Below are positions 20,894 to 31,533 of a stretch of 35,300 bases of DNA, piece by piece; position 1 is the first letter of the stretch; every line of letters starts with the position of its first letter. The stretch comes from Oscillospiraceae bacterium. GTDB lineage: Bacteria > Bacillota > Clostridia > Oscillospirales > UBA929. The DNA lies in NCBI GenBank assembly GCA_031254575.1, contig JAIRUE010000086.1:1-35300 (forward strand), written 5' to 3'. The position numbers and the translations under genes were made by a program. A model generated the notes under the pieces. That model made no database searches, had not been told where the DNA came from, and saw nothing but the letters and a program-made list of their open reading frames with translations.

Positions 20894-23329
20894 TCATCCG
20901 AACGGGACGTTCCAAATATTCCGCGCGTACTCCGTAATCGAGCGGTCGGCCGCGAAAAAGCCCGACTTGGCTATATTGACCAGCGAGCGCCGGTTCCATT
21001 CGGCGGGGTTGCGGTAGGCGGCTTCCACTTCTTTATGGACGGCGCAGTACCCTTCAAAATCGGCCATCAGAAAATAGGGATCCGCCCCCTCGTGCCCGCC
21101 GATCAGCAGGCCCTGAACGATGTCGGCGTACTCCACGCCGTCGCTCAGGCCTTCCGTAAGCTGATCCAGGACGCGGCGCAGCGCGGCGTTGTGCGAAATA
21201 TACGCTTTGGGCGAGTAACCCTCGCGGCGCATCCGGTCAACCTCTTCCGCGCGCAGGCCGAAGAGAAAGATATTTTCCGGCCCGACCAGCTCCGCGATCT
21301 CCACATTGGCGCCGTCGAGCGTACCGACGGTCAGCGCCCCGTTGAGCATGAACTTCATGTTGCCGGTACCCGACGCCTCTTTGCCCGCGGTGGAGATCTG
21401 CTCGCTGACTTCGCTGGCGGGAATCAGGCGCTCGGCCAGCGAGACGCTGTAATTTTCCAGAAAAACCACCGCGAGTTTTCCCCTCGCCGCCGGGTCGGCG
21501 GCAATGTGGGCGGCGATGCTGTGAATCAGGCGGATAATGCGCTTGGCCATGAAATAGCCGGGCGCGGCCTTGGCGCCGAAGATAAAGGTGCGCGGCAGGA
21601 AATCGGCGCCGGGCTCGTCTTTGAGCGTATTGTAGAGGTGGAGGATGTGCAGCGCGTTGAGGAGCTGCCTCTTATACTCGTGCAGGCGCTTGACCTGTGC
21701 GTCAAAGACGCTGTCCGGGTCCAGCGTCACGCCGCGCGTCCTTTGCATAAAGGCCGCAAATTCCGCCTTGTTCTCCCTTTTTATCGCGCCCAGCCGCTCA
21801 AGGACCGTCTCGTCGCTGATCCTTTTGAGCAGGGACTCGAGCGCGCCGGGGCGCGTGAGATAGGTATCACCCCCGGCCACGTCGCGGATCAGGCTGTGCA
21901 GGCGCGGGTTGATCTGCGCGAGCCAGCGGCGGTGATCGACGCCGTTGGTGACGTTGTGGAACTTGTTGGGCCACAGCGAGGCCTGACTTTTGAACAGCTC
22001 GTTGCGCAGGATGTCCGAATGCAGCGCGCTGACGCCGTTGACGGCGAAACAGGCGTATACGCAGAGGTTGGCCATGCGCACCTCGTTGCCCCAGATAACG
22101 GCCGACTGCCCGACGCGCGCCTCGTCGTGCAGCGCCTCCCACAGCAGCGGCAGGCAGCGCCGGTCGATCTCGCACAGGATCATCCATATGCGCGGCAGCA
22201 GCATTTCAATGAGGTTTTTCGGCCATATCTCCAGCGCCTCGGCCAGAACGGTATGGTTGGTGTAGGCGACGCAGTTGGTGACGATCTGCCACGCGCGGTC
22301 CCAGTCCATGCCCTCCTCGTCCATGAAAATGCGCATAAGCTCCGGGATGATGAGGGCGGGGTGGGTGTCGTTGATCTGTATCACGTTCCAGCGGTGGAAA
22401 TTTTGCAGGGTGCCGCGTTTGCGCTTGTGGCGGCGCACGATGCTCTGCGCCGTCGCCGAAACGAAAAAGTATTGCTGGCGCAGGCGGAGCAGCTTGCCCT
22501 CCATATGGTTGTCGTTGGGGTAGAGCACCATGTTGATAACGCGCGCCATCGCGTCCTGCTCGGTCGCTTTCATGTAGTTGCCCACTGAAAACTGCTCCAT
22601 GTCGATGGCGGTGTCGGCGGGGCTTTTGGCCTGCCAGAGGCGCAGCCTGTTGGTTTCGGCCCGGCCGTACCCGTTGACGGTCATGTCGAGCGGCACCGCC
22701 AGCACCTTGGTGTCGTCCTCCACTGAGACTTTGAGCCGGCCGTCCTCCTCATAGCAGGACACATTCCCTCCGAACGAGACGGACACCGCGTCGTCGGCGC
22801 GGGTCGAAAGCCAGACGCTGCCCTTGTCAAACCACGGGTCGGGCTGCTCGATCTGCTCGCCGTTGAAAATGCGCTGCACAAAGATGCCGAACTGATAGCA
22901 GAGCGAATACCCGGTGGCGCGGACGCCTATCGAGGTCATGGCCTCCAGGTAACAGGCCGCGAGGCGGCCCAGGCCGCCGTTGCCCAGGCCCGCGTCGGGC
23001 TCCTCCTCGGCGATGTCGCTCAGGCTGAGGCCCAGCAGCGACAGCGCCTGCTCCAGAGGCTCAAGGCAGCCGAGGTTGAACGCGTTTTTCATAAGGCTGC
23101 GCCCGAGCAGAAACTCCAGCGACAGGTAATGCACCTCGCGTCCGTCCCACTGTTTTTTGACAGGCTCCCCCGTCTCGCCCATCAGGTCAAACACCGCCAT
23201 GGCACAGGCGCGGAAGCGCAACTCGGGCGACGCCGATTCGGGCGTTCTGCCGAAGTTGCGCTGCAGGCGGCTGCGTATGCTCTGGGCGAGTTCCTCTGGG
23301 GTATACTTCATGAATTTGGCGGCTCCCAT
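20894..23329 (-). CDS. glgP: Glycogen/starch phosphorylase
   Basis: 811 aa; 'EEPDAGLGNGGLGRLAACYLEAMTSIGVRATGYSLCYQFGIF', C-terminal PLP region 'PASEVSEQISTAGKEASGTGNMKFMLNGALTVGTLDGANVEI'. Confidence 0.97.
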   Translation of the reverse strand: MGAAKFMKYTPEELAQSIRSRLQRNFGRTPESASPELRFRACAMAVFDLMGETGEPVKKQWDGREVHYLSLEFLLGRSLMKNAFNLGCLEPLEQALSLLGLSLSDIAEEEPDAGLGNGGLGRLAACYLEAMTSIGVRATGYSLCYQFGIFVQRIFNGEQIEQPDPWFDKGSVWLSTRADDAVSVSFGGNVSCYEEDGRLKVSVEDDTKVLAVPLDMTVNGYGRAETNRLRLWQAKSPADTAIDMEQFSVGNYMKATEQDAMARVINMVLYPNDNHMEGKLLRLRQQYFFVSATAQSIVRRHKRKRGTLQNFHRWNVIQINDTHPALIIPELMRIFMDEEGMDWDRAWQIVTNCVAYTNHTVLAEALEIWPKNLIEMLLPRIWMILCEIDRRCLPLLWEALHDEARVGQSAVIWGNEVRMANLCVYACFAVNGVSALHSDILRNELFKSQASLWPNKFHNVTNGVDHRRWLAQINPRLHSLIRDVAGGDTYLTRPGALESLLKRISDETVLERLGAIKRENKAEFAAFMQRTRGVTLDPDSVFDAQVKRLHEYKRQLLNALHILHLYNTLKDEPGADFLPRTFIFGAKAAPGYFMAKRIIRLIHSIAAHIAADPAARGKLAVVFLENYSVSLAERLIPASEVSEQISTAGKEASGTGNMKFMLNGALTVGTLDGANVEIAELVGPENIFLFGLRAEEVDRMRREGYSPKAYISHNAALRRVLDQLTEGLSDGVEYADIVQGLLIGGHEGADPYFLMADFEGYCAVHKEVEAAYRNPAEWNRRSLVNIAKSGFFAADRSITEYARNIWNVPFG

Positions 23330-23369
23330 CTTTGTATGATCCCGATAATCCCGTGATCGGCGGTTCTCT

Positions 23370-24815
23370 CTATTTGCAGATCTCCTTGTACAGCTTCTTA
23401 TACATCCTGGCGGATTCCGTCCAGCTGAAGTCGCTGGACATGCCGCGTTTCATCAGCGCGGCCCAGCGGTTTTTATGGTTATGATAAAGATCCACGGCGC
23501 GGCGCACGGCGTAGAGCAGGTCATATTTGTCATAGTTTGCGAACGTGAAGCCCAGGCCCTCGTCCGTCTCGGAATTATACGGCTCCACCGTGTCCTTCAG
23601 GCCGCCCGTTTCCCGGACGACCGGAACCGTGCCGTAGCGCATGGCAATCATCTGCGACAGGCCGCACGGCTCGGACTGGCTGGGCATGAGGAACATGTCC
23701 CCGCCCGCGTAGAGCGAGCCGGACAGCGACGCGTTGTACAGAATGGAAGCCGACAGCCGCCCCTCGTAATTGTGTCGCGCGGTGGAGAAAAACTGCTCAA
23801 AGTGCCAGTCACCCCGTCCCAGCAGCGCGAACTGTATGTCCATATCCATCAATTCGTCCAGCGCCTCCGCGACCAGATCCATCCCCTTGTGGCTGACCAG
23901 GCGGCCCACCGACACGACCAGCGGCACGTCGGGGTTCCTCGTGAGGCCCAGAAGTTTTTGCAGCTCGGCCTTGCAGACGGCCTTCCCCTTCAGGCTGTCG
24001 GCGGTGAACGTCTGCGTCAGGTTCCCGTCGGTGGCAGGGTCGAACAGCGCCGTGTCAATCCCGTTGAGGATGCCGGTCAGCTTATCCCGGTTTGCCGCCA
24101 GAACGCCCTCCAGCCCGTGGGCGTAATAGGCGTACTGGAGTTCCTCGGCGTAGGAGGGGCTGACCGTGGTCACGCGGTCGCTCAGCTCGATCGCGCCTTT
24201 CATCAGATTGAGGCCGCCCATGTACTCCAGCGTGCCGCCGTCGAAGACCGTGTGCGGCAGCCCAAACACGTTTTCCAGCGTTTCGCGCCCGAAACGCCCC
24301 TGATAGGCGATGTTGTGGATGGTAAAAACGGTGCGGATGGCGTCGACGGCCGGCACGCCGTCATACAGGCGGCGCATATAGGTGGGGATAAGCGCCGTCT
24401 GCCAGTCGTTGCAGTGTACAACGTCGGGCGCCCAGCCGTCAAATTCGGTCAGCAGGGCGGCGACGGCGCGGGAAAAGAACGCGTAGCGTTCCCCATCGTC
24501 GTAGTGGCCGTATATCTCGGCGCGCTTAAAATAATATTCGTTGTCCACGAAATAGAAGGTAACGCCGTCTTTCTTCAGCTCAAACAGGCCGCAGTAAAGG
24601 TTGCGCCACGCGAGCGGCACATAGATGTATTTTATGAACTTCATCTGCGCCCGCCACTGGTCGGGGATGGACCCGTACAGAGGCATGATGACACGCACCC
24701 CGTAACTGCTCCCGGCCAGGGCCGCCGGCAGGGCGCCGGCCACATCCCCCAACCCGCCGGTTTTGGCAAACGGCGCGGCTTCGCTCGTTGCGAATAAAAT
24801 TTTCATCTGCCTCAT
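23370..24815 (-). CDS. glgA: Glycogen synthase (ADP-glucose)
   Basis: 481 aa; N-terminal 'KILFATSEAAPFAKTGGLGDVAGALPAAL', C-terminal 'PSQSEPCGLSQMIAMRYGTVPVVRETGGLKDTV'. Confidence 0.97.
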   Translation of the reverse strand: MRQMKILFATSEAAPFAKTGGLGDVAGALPAALAGSSYGVRVIMPLYGSIPDQWRAQMKFIKYIYVPLAWRNLYCGLFELKKDGVTFYFVDNEYYFKRAEIYGHYDDGERYAFFSRAVAALLTEFDGWAPDVVHCNDWQTALIPTYMRRLYDGVPAVDAIRTVFTIHNIAYQGRFGRETLENVFGLPHTVFDGGTLEYMGGLNLMKGAIELSDRVTTVSPSYAEELQYAYYAHGLEGVLAANRDKLTGILNGIDTALFDPATDGNLTQTFTADSLKGKAVCKAELQKLLGLTRNPDVPLVVSVGRLVSHKGMDLVAEALDELMDMDIQFALLGRGDWHFEQFFSTARHNYEGRLSASILYNASLSGSLYAGGDMFLMPSQSEPCGLSQMIAMRYGTVPVVRETGGLKDTVEPYNSETDEGLGFTFANYDKYDLLYAVRRAVDLYHNHKNRWAALMKRGMSSDFSWTESARMYKKLYKEICK

Positions 24816-24833
24816 TCCTTTCTCCCGTTCAAA

Positions 24834-25955
24834 TCACACAATGCTGCCCTTGGAAATCGCGATCGGATAGGATTCATGCCCTTTCAGCGCGCGCCCCTTT
24901 GTGACGGTGACCTCTTTGTCGGTGATGGTAAAGGCAAGGTCAACGCCCGACTGGATACGGGTGTCCTGCATGAGGATGCAGTTTTTCAGCTTCGCGCCCC
25001 CCTCCACCCTCACGCCGCGGAACACGACGCAGTTCTCCAGATCCCCCTTGATGATGCAGCCGTCTGCGACAAGGTTGCGCTTGACATGGCTTTCGGGCGA
25101 ATAGTAAGTGGACGCCTCGTCGCGCACCTTAGTCCTGATGGGGCGCTTGCGGGAAAAGAGATCTCTGCGGACCTCCGGCTGCAGCAGGCACATCGACTGC
25201 CTGAAATAATCGGCGACCGACTGCGGGCGCGTGGAAAACCCCTCGTGGATATAGGCGGTTATATTGAGCTGGCCCTGCATACGCTGCAAAACGTCACGGG
25301 TAAAATTCACATAGTTGTGGGCGGCGGAGTCGGCCAGCAGCTTGCCCAGAAGAGTCTTGGAGAGGATATAGACCCCCACGCAGGGATAGACGTCTTTGTC
25401 CAGCCCGGACAGCAGCACCTCCTTCACGCGCCCCCTGGCGTCGGTGCGGAGATAGGCGTCGCTCTCATACCCGGGCTCGCGCGCGAGGCAGACGCAGGTG
25501 ATGTCGGCGCCCGTTTCCAGATGCTTCGCGAAAATCTCCTCCAGCGGGAGGTTGATAATCAGGTCGCCGTCGGCCAGCACGACATATTCCTGCCGGATAT
25601 GCTCGATATAGCTTGTGATGGCATAGAGGGCCTCCAGCTTGCCCCGGTAAGCGGTCACGGCGGTGTCGCGCCGCGCGCCCGCGTACGCGAACGGGGGCAG
25701 CAGCCGCAGGCCGCCCCGTTTGCGGGACAGATCCCAGTCCTTCCCGGACCCCAGGTGGTCGAGCAGGGACTGGTAATTCTCCCGCATGATAACGCCGATG
25801 TCGGTAATGCCGGCATTGACCATATTGGACAGCATGAAGTCGATGACCCGGTACCGCCCCCCGTACGGAATGGAGGAGGCCGTGCGGTGTTCCGTCAGCT
25901 CCTTGAGGCGTACGTTGGAGGAGTAGGCGAACAGGATGCCGTGCATATCTTTCAA
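24834..25955 (-). CDS. glgD: Glucose-1-phosphate adenylyltransferase regulatory subunit
   Basis: 373 aa; nucleotidyltransferase-like with diverged N-terminus 'MHGILFAYSSNVRLKELTEHRTASSIPYGGRYRVIDFMLSNMVNAGI'; adjacent to glgC. Confidence 0.94.
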   Translation of the reverse strand: MKDMHGILFAYSSNVRLKELTEHRTASSIPYGGRYRVIDFMLSNMVNAGITDIGVIMRENYQSLLDHLGSGKDWDLSRKRGGLRLLPPFAYAGARRDTAVTAYRGKLEALYAITSYIEHIRQEYVVLADGDLIINLPLEEIFAKHLETGADITCVCLAREPGYESDAYLRTDARGRVKEVLLSGLDKDVYPCVGVYILSKTLLGKLLADSAAHNYVNFTRDVLQRMQGQLNITAYIHEGFSTRPQSVADYFRQSMCLLQPEVRRDLFSRKRPIRTKVRDEASTYYSPESHVKRNLVADGCIIKGDLENCVVFRGVRVEGGAKLKNCILMQDTRIQSGVDLAFTITDKEVTVTKGRALKGHESYPIAISKGSIV

Positions 25956-25980
25956 AAACTGACCCTCCCAATGTCACACT

Positions 25981-27183
25981 CTATACCAAATCGGCATCCG
26001 CCATTTCCCGCGCCCCAACGGCCTTGCCGGGACCGACAGTGACGCCGGACGCGACGACGGCCACGCCCCAGTCCTCGGGGGAGTTCTTAAACATCCCGGG
26101 CGGCGCGCCGATCTTTGCCCCGGAGCGTATCGCCGCGTTTTCGGCGACAATGGCGTATCTGACGACGGCGCCGCGCTCAATGACCGCCCCGGGCATCACA
26201 ATGGAGTACTCCACCAGCGCGCCCTGCTCGACGGTGACGTCGTTGAACAGAACAGAGTTGAACACCCCGCCGTAGACCTCGCAGCCCTCCGTAACCAGGC
26301 TGTGCGAGACGGTGGCGGTATCCCCGATATAATGGGGGGGGGCCGTGGGGTTGCGCGCGTAAATGCGCCACGCAGGGTTGGAGAGATCGATCTCCTCCCC
26401 CGAAAGCATATCCATATTTGCTTCCCACAAATTGTCGATCGTCCCCACATCCCGCCAATAGCCCGAGAAGCGGTATACCGTCATCTTCTCTCCGCCGGCC
26501 AGCATCGAGGGGATGATATTGGTCCCGAAGTCGTTTTTGCTTTTAGGGTCGGCCTCGTCCGCGATCAGGTATTTCTTGAGTTTCTCCCATGTGAATATAT
26601 AAATGCCCATCGAAGCCAGCGTACTCTTCGGTTCCGCCGGTTTCTCCTCAAACTCAAGGATGCCGTCGTTCTCATCGACGTTCATGATCCCCATCCGCTT
26701 CGCCTCTTCGCGCGACACCTCGATGACCGGGATGGTGCAGTCCGACTGTGTGCGTTTGTGCTGCTCCAGCATGACGGCGTAATCCATTTTGTAAATGTGG
26801 TCGCCGCCGAGCACAAGGACGTATTCGGGGTTGTAGTTCTCGATAAAGGAGATGTTCTGATAGATGGCGTTTGCGCTGCCCTTGTACCAGGACGCCCCCT
26901 TGTTCTGCTGATAGGGGGGCAGGATATGCACGCCGCCCTCCAGCCGGTCAAGGTCCCACGGTTGCCCCGAGCCGATATACGCGTTGAGTTCGTGCGGCTG
27001 ATATTGCGTCAGCACCCCCACCGTGTCGATGCCGGAATTGGAGCAGTTGGAAAGGGGAAAGTCGATCAGGCGGAATTTGCCCCCGAACGGCACGGCGGGC
27101 TTCGCCACATGGGTGGTGAGCACATACAGGCGGCTACCCTGACCCCCGGCCAGCAGCATGGCGATACACTCTTTCTTCATCAA
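25981..27183 (-). CDS. glgC: Glucose-1-phosphate adenylyltransferase
   Basis: 400 aa; '[47 protein letters not shown]', '[22 protein letters not shown]'. Confidence 0.97.
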
Positions 27184-27184
27184 A

Positions 27185-29059
27185 TCAACCCTTCTTGAAG
27201 AAGATGGCGCCGTAAGGAGACAGGGTGAGCTGGGCCGACCACTGCATACTGCCGCACGGTACGTTCTCCGCGGTCAGCGAGCCGTTGACCTGGCCGAAAC
27301 CGCCGAAGCGGTCCTCGTTGGTGTTGAGGGCCTCGTAATAGACGCCGGGCCCGGGCAGCGCCAGCCGGTACCCTTCGCGGTTGACCGGGGAGAAGTTGAA
27401 CAGGCAGACGACCGACCCTCCGTCCCTGTCGGCGCGGATAAAGGAGAGGGTGTTGCCCTGATAGTCGCCCGGCGTGATCCAGGAAAACCCGTCCCATGAA
27501 TCCTCGATTTCCCACAGGCAGCGGGTCTGCAGGTAAAACATGTTGAGCGTTTTGACAAATTCCTTGAATTTTTTGTGCATATCATATTCTATGAGGTGCC
27601 AGTCAAGGCTCTGGCCGAAATTCCACTCGATGAACTGGGCGAACTCGATGCCCATAAAGGTCATCTTCTTGCCCGGATGCGCGATCATGTAGGAGAGATA
27701 GGTGCGCACGCCGGCGAACTTATCGACGTAATAGCCCGGCATTTTCTCGATGACCGAGCACTTGCCGTGTACCACCTCGTCGTGCGAGAGCGGCAGGATG
27801 AAATTTTCGGAGAAGGCGTACATCATCGAGAAGGTCATCTTGTTATGGTTATACTGCCGGAAAATAGGGTCGAGCTTGACATAGGAGAGCGTGTCGTTCA
27901 TCCAGCCCATGTTCCATTTGAAATTGAACCCCAGACCGCCCATATAGGCGGGCTTCGTCACCATCGGCCACGCCGTCGATTCCTCGGCGATCATCAGCGC
28001 GTGGGGAAAGGCCGCGAAAACCTGTTCGTTGGCCTTGCGCAGGAAAGACAGCGCCTCCAGGTTCTCCCGCCCGCCGTAAATATTCCTGGGACCGCCGCCG
28101 CGCTTGCCGTAGTCGAGGTAGAGCATACTGGCCACGGCGTCAACCCGCAGGCCGTCGGCATGGAAAAGGTCCAGCCAGAACATGGCCGAGGACAGCAAAA
28201 ACGAACGCGTCTCGTTCCGCCCGTAATCAAAGACGCGGGTCCCCCATTCGGGATGCTCCCGCCGGGCGGGGTCGGAATATTCGTAGCAGCACCCGCCGTC
28301 GAAGTCGATCAGCCCGTGCCCGTCCTTGGGGAAGTGGGCGGGAACCCAGTCGAGGATGACGCCCACGCCGGACTGGTGGCACAGATCGACCAGCCGCATG
28401 AACTCCTTCGGCGTGCCGTAGCGGCTGGTGGCGGCGAAATACCCGGTCACCTGATACCCCCACGAGGCGTCCAGGGGATGTTCCATCACCGGCATCAGCT
28501 CTATATGCGTATAGCCCATTTCCTTCACATAGGGAATAAGCCGCTCGGCTGTCTCCGTATATGTAAGGACACGGTTGTTCTCTCCGCGCTGCCAGGAGCC
28601 GAGGTGCATCTCATAGATATTGAGAGGCCGGTCATACGGCGGGCGGCGGGCGGCGAGCCAGCCGGCGTCGCCCCACTCATAGCCGGACAGGTCATAGACC
28701 TTCGACGCCGTTTTGGGACGCACTTCCGCGTGGAAGGCGTACGGGTCGCTTTTTTCCTGCGTCGCGCCGCTGCGGCCCTTTACGGCGTACTTATAGGCGT
28801 CATACTCGGCCAGTCCCGGCACAAACACCTCCCAGACCCCCACCGACACCTTCTCCATCGGGGTTTTCCCGTGCTCCCAGCCGTTAAACTCACCGATCAC
28901 CGAGACGGCCCCGGCGTCGGGCGCCCACACCCGGAAAACCACGCCCTTTTTGCCGCCCCGCGCCTCAAAATGCGCGCCCATAAACTCATAGGCCCGGCAG
29001 TCGTTCCCCTCGTGGAACAGATACAGGTGGTTGTCGAGATCGTTTTTCCCTTTTGGCAT
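27185..29059 (-). CDS. glgB: 1,4-alpha-glucan branching enzyme (GH13)
   Basis: Start [20 protein letters not shown] at 29059 with AGGAGTG RBS; '[26 protein letters not shown]', '[16 protein letters not shown]', '[14 protein letters not shown]'. Confidence 0.97.
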
Positions 29060-29182
29060 GGCGGGATCACTCCTTGTAATACTCCGTACGCATCCGGCGG
29101 CCGCCCGCCCGGGAAGCTCCGGCCTCTCCCGCAAGCCCGCCGGGCTCGCGCCGCAGTCTTCCCTTCGGATGACGGAGCGGAT

Positions 29183-29975: not shown

Positions 29976-30653
29976 ATGGCGACCGGTTTTTCGCGCTCAC
30001 TGGCGCTGCTGCGGAAGGAAAAAGGGCTCAGCCAGCGCGCCGCCGCCGCGGGCCTCGGCGTTTCGCAGGCCCTTTTGAGCCATTATGAGACGGGGGCGCG
30101 GGAACCGGGGCTGCCGTTCATCGTCCGCGCCTGTGATTATTATGACGTCTCGGCCGATTTTCTGCTGGGGCGCACGATGGTGCGCGACGGCTCGCCGGTT
30201 GACCCCGGCGCGATGCACGACGCCCAGACCGACAATCAAAACCGCCTCGGACGCGTCTCCGCCGCGTCGATCCTGGGGCGGAAGATGGTCGTCAACGCCG
30301 TAAGCATCCTCTTCGACCTTGCGGGCCGTTCGGGCAGCACGGCGCTGACGACGGAACTGACCAACTATTTCGGCGGGGCCGTTTATAAATTATTCCGGCA
30401 TTTCTACGCCGTGTCGGGTGTCGGCGAACAGGTCTTTTTCTCGGCCCCGCACTGCGCGTACGGTCCCGCGGCCGACGCGGACATGGCCCGGAGCGAGGCG
30501 CGCCTGCTGGCCGTCCTGCATCAAAAAGACGGCGCGCCGGCACTGCCCGCCCTTTCCAACGACAGCCTCACCGCCGAATACCCGCAGACGGTGCGCAGCC
30601 TGCTGACGCTGACGCATCAGGCGGGGGAGCGGGCCGCCGGAAAGCTCCTCTGA
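29976..30653 (+). CDS. XRE-family helix-turn-helix transcriptional regulator
   Basis: 226 aa from MATGFSRSLALLRKEKGLSQRAAAAGLGVSQALLSHYETGAREPGLPFIVRACDYYDVSADFLLGRT (classic Cro/CI HTH). Confidence 0.93.
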   Translation: MATGFSRSLALLRKEKGLSQRAAAAGLGVSQALLSHYETGAREPGLPFIVRACDYYDVSADFLLGRTMVRDGSPVDPGAMHDAQTDNQNRLGRVSAASILGRKMVVNAVSILFDLAGRSGSTALTTELTNYFGGAVYKLFRHFYAVSGVGEQVFFSAPHCAYGPAADADMARSEARLLAVLHQKDGAPALPALSNDSLTAEYPQTVRSLLTLTHQAGERAAGKLL

Positions 30654-30700: not shown

Positions 30701-30728
30701 TTGACAATCCCCTTTTTTTGTGTATACT
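30701..30728 (+). promoter_or_regulatory. Strong sigmaA promoter driving the riboswitch transcript
   Basis: TTGACA (30701-30706), 16 nt, TATACT (30723-30728), with A/T-rich UP-like tract just upstream. Confidence 0.8.
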
Positions 30729-30742
30729 GTGTGTATAGGGAA

Positions 30743-30832
30743 AATCGAAAAGGCAAACCTGTCGAAAGGCAGGGACGCAAAGCTACAGGGCCTGAACCGC
30801 TTTTGCGGGTGGCAGCCAGTTGCCGAAGATGC
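30743..30832 (+). promoter_or_regulatory. Cyclic di-GMP-I riboswitch aptamer (GEMM)
   Basis: Hallmark GEMM-I sequence AGGCAAACC-TGTCGAAAGGCA-GGGACGCAAAGC-TACAGGGCCTGAA-CCGCTTTTGCGG-GTGGCAGCCAGTTGCCG; GGCAA (30752-30756) pairs with TTGCC (30820-30824); GAAA tetraloop and P3 hairpin present. Confidence 0.94.
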
Positions 30833-30839
30833 GTGAACG

Positions 30840-30884
30840 CGCTGTCTTTCCGGTATGGCTGGAGGGATGGCGGGTTTTGTTTTT
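30840..30884 (+). terminator. Probable expression-platform terminator of the GEMM riboswitch
   Basis: CGCTGTCTTTCC (30840-30851) pairs with GGAGGGATGGCG (30861-30872), including G-U wobbles, 9-nt loop, then GGTTTTGTTTTT. Confidence 0.65.
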
Positions 30885-30963
30885 GTCATAAGGCCCGAAT
30901 GTACATTTCACCGCCTTATTCGGCTGTTTCCCTAAGCTCCATTCTTCTTACCCATCTTTACTC

Positions 30964-31011
30964 GCTTGCGGCTCAGTTCCTGACCGCAAGCACTTTTTTG
31001 TTGTTTTTTTT
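30964..31011 (+). terminator. Second strong intrinsic terminator
   Basis: GCTTGCGG-c-TCAG-TTC-CTGA-CCGCAAGC (30964-30991), 12 bp with one bulged C, followed by ACTTTTTTGTTGTTTTTTTT. Confidence 0.85.
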
Positions 31012-31062
31012 GCTCCCATGCGGTAAAATATTATCCCAGCGCCGTCAGAGGGGAGGCTGTCC

Positions 31063-31533
31063 ATGCGTATTCAAGCCAAAGCGCCGCCGGAGCGCGTGAT
31101 GAGACGCCTGCGGAACGCCTGCGAGCCGTGGGACCGCGCGGGATTCTGCAAAAAAGACGCCGCCGTCCTCCGGACAGGCGGCAGCCGGTTCGCGCTGACC
31201 GTCAACGGCGAGCGGGGCCGCACGCACCCCCAGCGCGTCTTCCGCGGCACTGTCCGCGAAGACGGGAACGGCGGCTCGGTCATCCGGGGCCGCTTCGGCA
31301 TGACGGCCGCCGACCGCCTGCTGGTCTACCTGCCCTCGCAGCTCCTGCTGCTGCTCGCGGCCTTCCTCACCCCAAGCCTTGAGGTCAAATACGCCGCAGT
31401 CCTGTGGATCGCCGTACTGCTCTGCGCCTTTACGCTGATCGGCTTCCTGACCGCGATCAACGTCTTCACCGGCGCGGAACGGCAGCGGCGGATGACCGAT
31501 CTATTACAAAAGATAGGAGAATCCCCGCGATGA
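31063..31533 (+). CDS. Uncharacterised small protein with two C-terminal TM helices
   Basis: 156 aa; RBS GGGGAGG upstream; TM 'LLVYLPSQLLLLLAAFLTP' and 'YAAVLWIAVLLCAFTLIGFLTAI'; stop overlaps argS start (ATGA). Confidence 0.75.
   Translation: MRIQAKAPPERVMRRLRNACEPWDRAGFCKKDAAVLRTGGSRFALTVNGERGRTHPQRVFRGTVREDGNGGSVIRGRFGMTAADRLLVYLPSQLLLLLAAFLTPSLEVKYAAVLWIAVLLCAFTLIGFLTAINVFTGAERQRRMTDLLQKIGESPR

What the first reader, a model, noticed from the sequence alone, without database searches (positions are those of the whole stretch)
30701..31062. c-di-GMP-I riboswitch with own promoter and two successive terminators: orphan RNA or c-di-GMP control of a membrane protein-argS operon
Seen: strong promoter, canonical GEMM-I aptamer, a G-U-rich hairpin plus U-tract immediately 3' (30840-30884), then a second strong terminator (30964-31011) before the next gene. 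No good ORF lies between them. Known: GEMM-I riboswitches usually control motility, adhesion or c-di-GMP turnover genes through terminators. Inference: either a short regulated RNA, a lost target gene, or control of the 156-aa membrane protein coupled to argS, which would be an unusual target.
Basis: partly seen in the sequence, partly recalled or inferred. Interest (0 to 1): 0.72.

Follow-up and report, generated by a model that had tools for sequence, protein, structure and literature searches.

The report
c-di-GMP riboswitch gating a small RNA
In a lineage of termite-gut bacteria, a sensor for the signal molecule c-di-GMP sits in front of no protein gene but appears to switch a small regulatory RNA on and off, and that RNA may in turn control glycogen breakdown.

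Summary
There is a strong promoter, a c-di-GMP-I aptamer (RF01051, 80.2 bits, the only one in the genome), a hairpin plus U-tract, and a second strong terminator. The argS-operon reading is not supported. The same unit recurs in related termite-gut Oscillospiraceae beside different genes, three of them convergent. What recurs between the terminators is a non-coding, unpaired C/U-rich motif, CCAUUCUUC-(2-3 nt)-ACCCAUCUU. A scan of 85,462 species finds this motif behind an aptamer only in this lineage. One relative keeps promoter, motif and terminator but has no aptamer. In all five congeners hairpin 1 is a terminator with a conserved antiterminator made from the aptamer's own 3' strand: a Cd1-type OFF switch. 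I conclude that c-di-GMP gates a small RNA (sRNA). The best candidate target is glgP (glycogen phosphorylase), whose ribosome-binding site pairs with the motif strongly in two genera (17 bp; 13 bp) and more weakly in three others, including this genome. In the window the glgBCDAP operon lies divergently nearby. The sRNA reading is well supported, the OFF logic is computed, the target is only suggestive. No expression data exist here. Precedents (EutX/Rli55, C. difficile RCd11) make this a new variant of a known kind.

The parts
30701..30728 (+). sigma-70-type promoter, TTGACA-16-TATACT; TSS predicted near 30735
   Evidence: promoters found at the equivalent place in G001, G002, G005, G006 and G013 and in G015 without an aptamer
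30742..30827 (+). c-di-GMP-I (GEMM-I) aptamer
   Evidence: RF01051, 80.2 bits
30816..30862 (+). antiterminator: aptamer 3' strand CCAGUUGCCGAAGAUGCG pairs with CGCGCUGUCUUUCCGGUAUGGCUGG
   Evidence: minimum-energy fold of the decision-point prefix in all five genus members; alone -17.6 to -23.4 kcal/mol
30840..30885 (+). terminator 1 (hairpin 30840-30872, U-tract 30875-30885)
   Evidence: equivalents in G001, G002, G005, G006
30886..30926 (+). species-specific spacer with a hairpin (AUAAGGC/GCCUUAU), absent from G001 and G005
30927..30934 (+). UUUCCCUA, able to pair with the RNA's 5' end UAGGGAAA (possible long-range helix, not established)
30937..30963 (+). conserved unpaired C/U-rich sRNA motif CUCCAUUCUUCUUACCCAUCUUUACUC (core 30940-30958)
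   Evidence: unpaired probability 1.00
30964..31011 (+). terminator 2, 3' end of the proposed sRNA
   Evidence: a hairpin at this place in all nine carriers
23325..23333 (-). AAAGAUGGG overlapping the predicted glgP start codon (23329); complementary to sRNA CCCAUCUUU
20894..23329 (-). glgP, glycogen phosphorylase, candidate target
   Evidence: TIGR02093, 1007.7 bits; ortholog search
23370..29134 (-). glgB-glgC-glgD-glgA, with glgP making a glgBCDAP operon divergent from the riboswitch

Best explanation
This is an autonomous non-coding RNA gene gated by c-di-GMP. Transcription starts near 30735 and runs through a GEMM-I aptamer. When c-di-GMP is low, the aptamer's 3' strand is captured by the antiterminator, terminator 1 cannot form, and RNA polymerase reads on to terminator 2, giving an RNA of about 276 nt that carries an exposed C/U-rich motif. 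When c-di-GMP is high, the bound aptamer holds its 3' strand, terminator 1 forms, and only a leader of about 150 nt is made. The exposed motif then pairs in trans with ribosome-binding sites; the best candidate is glgP, so low c-di-GMP would repress glycogen phosphorylase. Shown by computation: the parts, their conservation, and the two alternative folds. Inferred: transcription, ligand response, sRNA function and target.
For: The aptamer matches RF01051 at 80.2 bits. The motif occurs only with the unit in relatives: 7 genomes by exact gapped pattern, 0 or 1 per genome. Of 29 hits in 85,462 species, the five with an aptamer core upstream are all Oscillospiraceae MAGs of this family, plus a contig-edge copy (G014); most others lie in long open frames and the total matches the roughly 30 expected by chance. 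G015 keeps promoter, motif and terminator without an aptamer, next to the same GNAT gene as G010. Downstream genes differ and some are convergent. At the decision point the antiterminator beats the enforced aptamer by 3.6-6.7 kcal/mol in all five genus members, and with the aptamer enforced the terminator hairpin forms once its 3' arm is present. Cd1, a proven OFF switch, has the same strand logic (PMC9262584). Motif unpaired probability is 0.59-1.00 against 0.40-0.64 for the whole RNA. GGDEF proteins are present in every carrier. Target: glgP in G006 pairs over 17 contiguous bp across the SD and was the top non-self hit in the stretches scanned; a following test of the orthologues found 13 contiguous bp plus 6 more at the G010 glgP start. 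Against 246 background initiation regions p is .004 (G006).008 (G010).016 (G005).020 (G001).041 (G000).
Against: There are no RNA data. Only five close genomes share terminator 1; in genus g5 the aptamer lacks a separate terminator hairpin, so its switching mechanism there is unclear. The glgP pairing is not above background in G002, G013, G014 and G015; in G000 it is only 9 bp, and the whole-duplex shuffle test is not significant there (p 0.30). G014's terminator has no U-tract and its unit lies at a contig edge. The target was found by search and only part of each genome was scanned.
Confidence: 0.72

Rival explanations
1. The gated 3' part is a protein sponge (EutX/Rli55-like): the repeated CCAUnCUU motif binds an RNA-binding protein rather than mRNAs.
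For: The motif is an imperfect repeat (CCAUUCUUC ... CCCAUCUU) and its spacer varies by one base; G014 carries further CU-rich sequence upstream. The overall layout equals EutX/Rli55.
Against: No ANTAR-type dual hairpin was noticed; complementarity to glgP initiation regions in two genera is better explained by base pairing.
Confidence: 0.15
2. The switch is ON rather than OFF: c-di-GMP increases read-through into the sRNA.
For: A short hairpin between the aptamer's 3' flank and the terminator 5' arm could act as a ligand-favoured antiterminator.
Against: The dominant alternative fold uses the aptamer's own 3' strand in all five species, the Cd1 OFF design.
Confidence: 0.15
3. Ordinary cis control: read-through past both terminators lets c-di-GMP control the 156-aa protein and argS.
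For: Co-directional argS follows in G000, G001 and G005.
Against: Terminator 2 is strong and conserved; in G002, G010 and G015 the next gene is convergent, in G013 it is thrS; the conserved motif would have no role.
Confidence: 0.05
4. A c-di-GMP reservoir like Bdellovibrio merRNA: the aptamer itself is the product.
For: Orphan aptamer with a strong promoter.
Against: A switching platform and a downstream motif are conserved; G015 has the motif without the aptamer.
Confidence: 0.04

Closest known systems
EutX / Rli55 (adenosylcobalamin riboswitch-containing sRNA of Enterococcus and Listeria)
   Same: Own promoter, aptamer, ligand-stabilised terminator, then a functional non-coding element; ligand shortens the RNA; acts in trans near the controlled locus (PMC5821096).
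   Different: Ligand is c-di-GMP; the 3' element is an unpaired C/U-rich motif, not an ANTAR-protein binding site; candidate target is an mRNA.
C. difficile Cdi1_4/Cdi1_5-RCd11/RCd12
   Same: c-di-GMP-I riboswitch; about 140-nt terminated and about 400-nt read-through non-coding RNAs; negative control by c-di-GMP (PMC7699646).
   Different: RCd11/12 are cis-antisense antitoxins on prophages with a second promoter; here no antisense gene is seen and targets would be in trans.
C. difficile Cd1 c-di-GMP-I riboswitch
   Same: Antiterminator built from the aptamer's 3' strand and terminator strands; aptamer and terminator can coexist (PMC9262584).
   Different: Cd1 controls a protein-coding operon; here the regulated product is non-coding.
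Bdellovibrio merRNA
   Same: Orphan c-di-GMP riboswitch RNA with no downstream ORF (PMC3627812).
   Different: Proposed ligand reservoir; no gated sRNA domain reported.
c-di-GMP control of glycogen breakdown through GlgX in Streptomyces
   Same: c-di-GMP promotes glycogen breakdown (PMC9530166), the direction predicted here.
   Different: Allosteric enzyme activation, not an sRNA.

Membership tests
c-di-GMP-I (GEMM-I) riboswitch | Aptamer sequence and structure matching RF01051 | tested here: met
   80.2 bits against gathering 35
c-di-GMP-I (GEMM-I) riboswitch | c-di-GMP rather than cGAMP preference (G at the position called G20 in Vc2) | tested here: inconclusive
   The base before CAAA is G (30753), as in the Rfam consensus; the position mapping is from memory; G20A binding cGAMP from PMC6274999; no binding assay
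c-di-GMP-I (GEMM-I) riboswitch | Ligand-dependent expression platform | tested here: inconclusive
   Mutually exclusive antiterminator and aptamer folds predicted in five species; not measured
Riboswitch-controlled sRNA (EutX/Rli55 type) | Independent transcription unit with own promoter and terminator | tested here: met
   sequence evidence only
Riboswitch-controlled sRNA (EutX/Rli55 type) | Conserved non-coding functional element after the regulated terminator | tested here: met
   Conserved and non-coding; no Rfam family matches 30828-31070 above its threshold; its function is untested
Riboswitch-controlled sRNA (EutX/Rli55 type) | Element binds the ANTAR protein EutV | not tested
   No ANTAR-type dual hairpin was noticed in the folds; no dedicated search was run
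Trans-encoded base-pairing sRNA | Accessible seed complementary to target initiation regions | tested here: inconclusive
   Accessible; glgP pairing strong in G006 and G010, moderate in G005, G001 and G000, absent in four carriers
RCd11-type antisense antitoxin | Antisense to a small toxin gene | tested here: inconclusive
   Nearest neighbours in the carriers are ordinary genes; minus-strand ORFs overlap the unit in the window but their conservation was not formally tested

The most novel reading that the evidence does not exclude
A c-di-GMP OFF riboswitch gates a trans-acting sRNA that represses glgP translation, giving an RNA-only route from c-di-GMP to glycogen breakdown in gut Firmicutes; one species has the sRNA without the aptamer.
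Probability: 0.4. Interest if true: 0.8.

Novelty: new variant of a known kind. Interest (0 to 1): 0.66.

Why it matters
Riboswitches that gate a small RNA instead of a cis gene are rare, and the known c-di-GMP cases are prophage antitoxins or a proposed reservoir. A c-di-GMP-gated sRNA converts one sensor into control of unlinked mRNAs. [quoted passage not shown] It also suggests that other orphan c-di-GMP-I riboswitches be re-examined for conserved non-coding segments after the first terminator.

Tried and rejected
The secreted transglutaminase-like protein controlled by the g2 riboswitch was tested as the conserved target: in g1 and g5, close homologues exist only in G001 and G003. A second initiation-region match in G001 (245-aa membrane protein) has no orthologue in the family. 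A long-range helix between the RNA's 5' end and the pre-motif sequence is suggestive in G001 and G002 (p 0.001, 0.005) but weak elsewhere (0.05-0.49), so it is not claimed. A search of genome contigs with the 156-aa protein found no relative. The own genome has no second full-length complement of the motif. Ligand-ON logic was considered and ranked lower. No c-di-GMP-II riboswitch was found in the family, but that search had no positive control.

Full report
OBSERVATION. The described anatomy is in the sequence. Promoter TTGACA-16-TATACT at 30701-30728, a full-length c-di-GMP-I aptamer at 30742-30827 with 80.2 bits, hairpin 1 at 30840-30872 followed by a U-tract, and terminator 2 at 30964-31011. 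The aptamer is the only RF01051 match in the assembly. The assembly has five GGDEF matches, so a c-di-GMP source is likely.

COMPARISON. Nineteen genomes of the family are held. Five genus members (G000, G001, G002, G005, G006) and two of genus g5 (G010, G013) carry one aptamer each, in front of no protein gene. Public records place several of these among Oscillospiraceae MAGs (termite-gut origin is inferred from isolate names and own knowledge). In genus g2 the aptamer lies directly upstream of a secreted transglutaminase-like gene, an ordinary riboswitch. In g1 and g5 the stretch after the aptamer contains CCAUUCUUC-(2-3 nt)-ACCCAUCUU (UCAUUCUUC in g5), then a strong hairpin. A gapped pattern for it hits only these units, plus G014 at a contig edge. 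In G015 a promoter leads straight into the motif and terminator with no aptamer, beside the same convergent GNAT gene as in G010. Among 85,462 species the pattern gave 29 hits where about 30 are expected by chance; only five, all from this family, have an aptamer core upstream, while most others lie in long open frames.

CONTEXT. Downstream neighbours are argS (G001, G005, and G000 after an extra 156-aa ORF), thrS (G013), a convergent cysK-like gene (G002), a convergent GNAT gene (G010, G015) and a YitT-like gene (G014); upstream neighbours differ too (gene names other than argS are read from the sequences, not from a family search). The unit therefore does not serve a cis gene. No ORF of note lies in it and no Rfam family matches the 3' part above threshold (best chance hit 17 bits against 35).

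SWITCH. Folding growing prefixes showed that in all five g1 species the aptamer's 3' strand CCAGUUGCCGAAG pairs with the terminator's 5' arm, loop and CUGG. At the decision point this antiterminator fold is favoured over the enforced aptamer fold by 3.6-6.7 kcal/mol (G000 6.4, G001 6.3, G005 3.6, G002 6.7, G006 5.0), a range that nanomolar ligand binding could offset (inference). With the aptamer enforced and the 3' arm present, terminator 1 forms. This is the layout of Cd1 of C. difficile, an OFF switch (PMC9262584). The many G-U pairs of hairpin 1 fit an arm that must pair with two partners (inference). In g5 no separate hairpin 1 is present; there the aptamer is closed by a longer A/U-rich stem whose 3' strand is U-rich (sequence), so its switching mechanism is open.

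sRNA. In the folded full-length RNAs the motif is unpaired (probability 1.00 in G000 and G001, 0.59-0.99 elsewhere) while the rest is structured. An unpaired C/U-rich segment followed by an intrinsic terminator is typical of base-pairing sRNAs of Gram-positive bacteria (own knowledge).

TARGET. A two-mismatch scan hit the glgP ribosome-binding site of G006: AGAUGGGUAAAGGAGAA pairs over 17 contiguous bases with UUCUUCUUUACCCAUCU. The glgP orthologues were then examined as a separate test. G010 glgP contains UAUGGAAGAAUGG over its start codon, 13 contiguous pairs with its own sRNA plus six more over the SD. G005, G001 and G000 have nine pairs (AAAGAUGGG or GAAGAUGGG) at or near the start. Against 246 background initiation regions, p = .004 (G006).008 (G010).016 (G005).020 (G001).041 (G000).15 (G002) and .37-.46 (G013, G014, G015); genomes without the sRNA give .07-.87. 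Excluding G006 and keeping one genome per related group, the combined p is .008-.014; non-carriers give .69. RNAduplex with shuffled sRNA is significant only for G006, G010 and G005. In the stretches scanned, glgP is the best non-self site in G006 (z -5.8) and the best start-region site in G005 and G006 and second in G010, but not in G000. I hold glgP as the leading candidate, not as established.

NEIGHBOURHOOD. In the window glgB-glgC-glgD-glgA-glgP run on the minus strand from 29134 to 20894, divergent from the helix-turn-helix regulator at 29976-30653 and the riboswitch. In G001 and G005 glgP and the sRNA share a contig; in G002, G006, G010, G013 and G015 they are on different contigs.

KNOWN SYSTEMS. 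EutX/Rli55 has the same architecture with adenosylcobalamin. In C. difficile, c-di-GMP-I riboswitches precede the antisense antitoxins RCd11/RCd12, with terminated and read-through RNAs. merRNA of Bdellovibrio is an orphan c-di-GMP riboswitch RNA. c-di-GMP activates glycogen debranching in Streptomyces. Within the open-access papers searched I found no report of a c-di-GMP-gated trans-acting sRNA, nor of an sRNA-glgP link driven by c-di-GMP; subscription literature was not searchable.

VERDICT. Real and more interesting than read: a conserved riboswitch-gated non-coding RNA. Certainty falls from aptamer (near certain), to gated sRNA (about 0.8), to OFF logic (about 0.75), to glgP as target (about 0.4).

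Noticed in passing
L039 and L037, and relatives (G011, G016, G007, G017, G018): In genus g2 a c-di-GMP-I aptamer with a terminator-like hairpin lies directly upstream of a secreted transglutaminase-like protein (PF01841), apparently an ordinary cis target.
   Followed up: partly
L047 (G015:C19 around 23048): Promoter, sRNA motif and terminator without aptamer; a divergent gene upstream reads like a CheW-type protein.
   Followed up: partly
L044 (G014:C7, contig edge): The motif is preceded by about 80 nt of almost pure C/U sequence with repeated CCATCTTC-like units; its hairpin lacks a U-tract.
   Followed up: no
L008/L026 (G049:C155:39796-40049) and L010/L028 (G043:C273): Tandem pairs of c-di-GMP-I aptamers about 60 nt apart in other families of the order.
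   Followed up: no
window 31063-31533: 156-aa membrane protein without Pfam match or homologue in the genome-collection scan; found between the unit and argS only in this genome.
   Followed up: partly
window 30886-30926: Species-specific insert with a short hairpin between terminator 1 and the sRNA motif, absent in G001 and G005.
   Followed up: no
L127 (G001:C23:18250-18290): Initiation region of a 245-aa membrane protein ORF pairs with both halves of the sRNA motif (10 + 9 bp); no orthologue in the family.
   Followed up: yes
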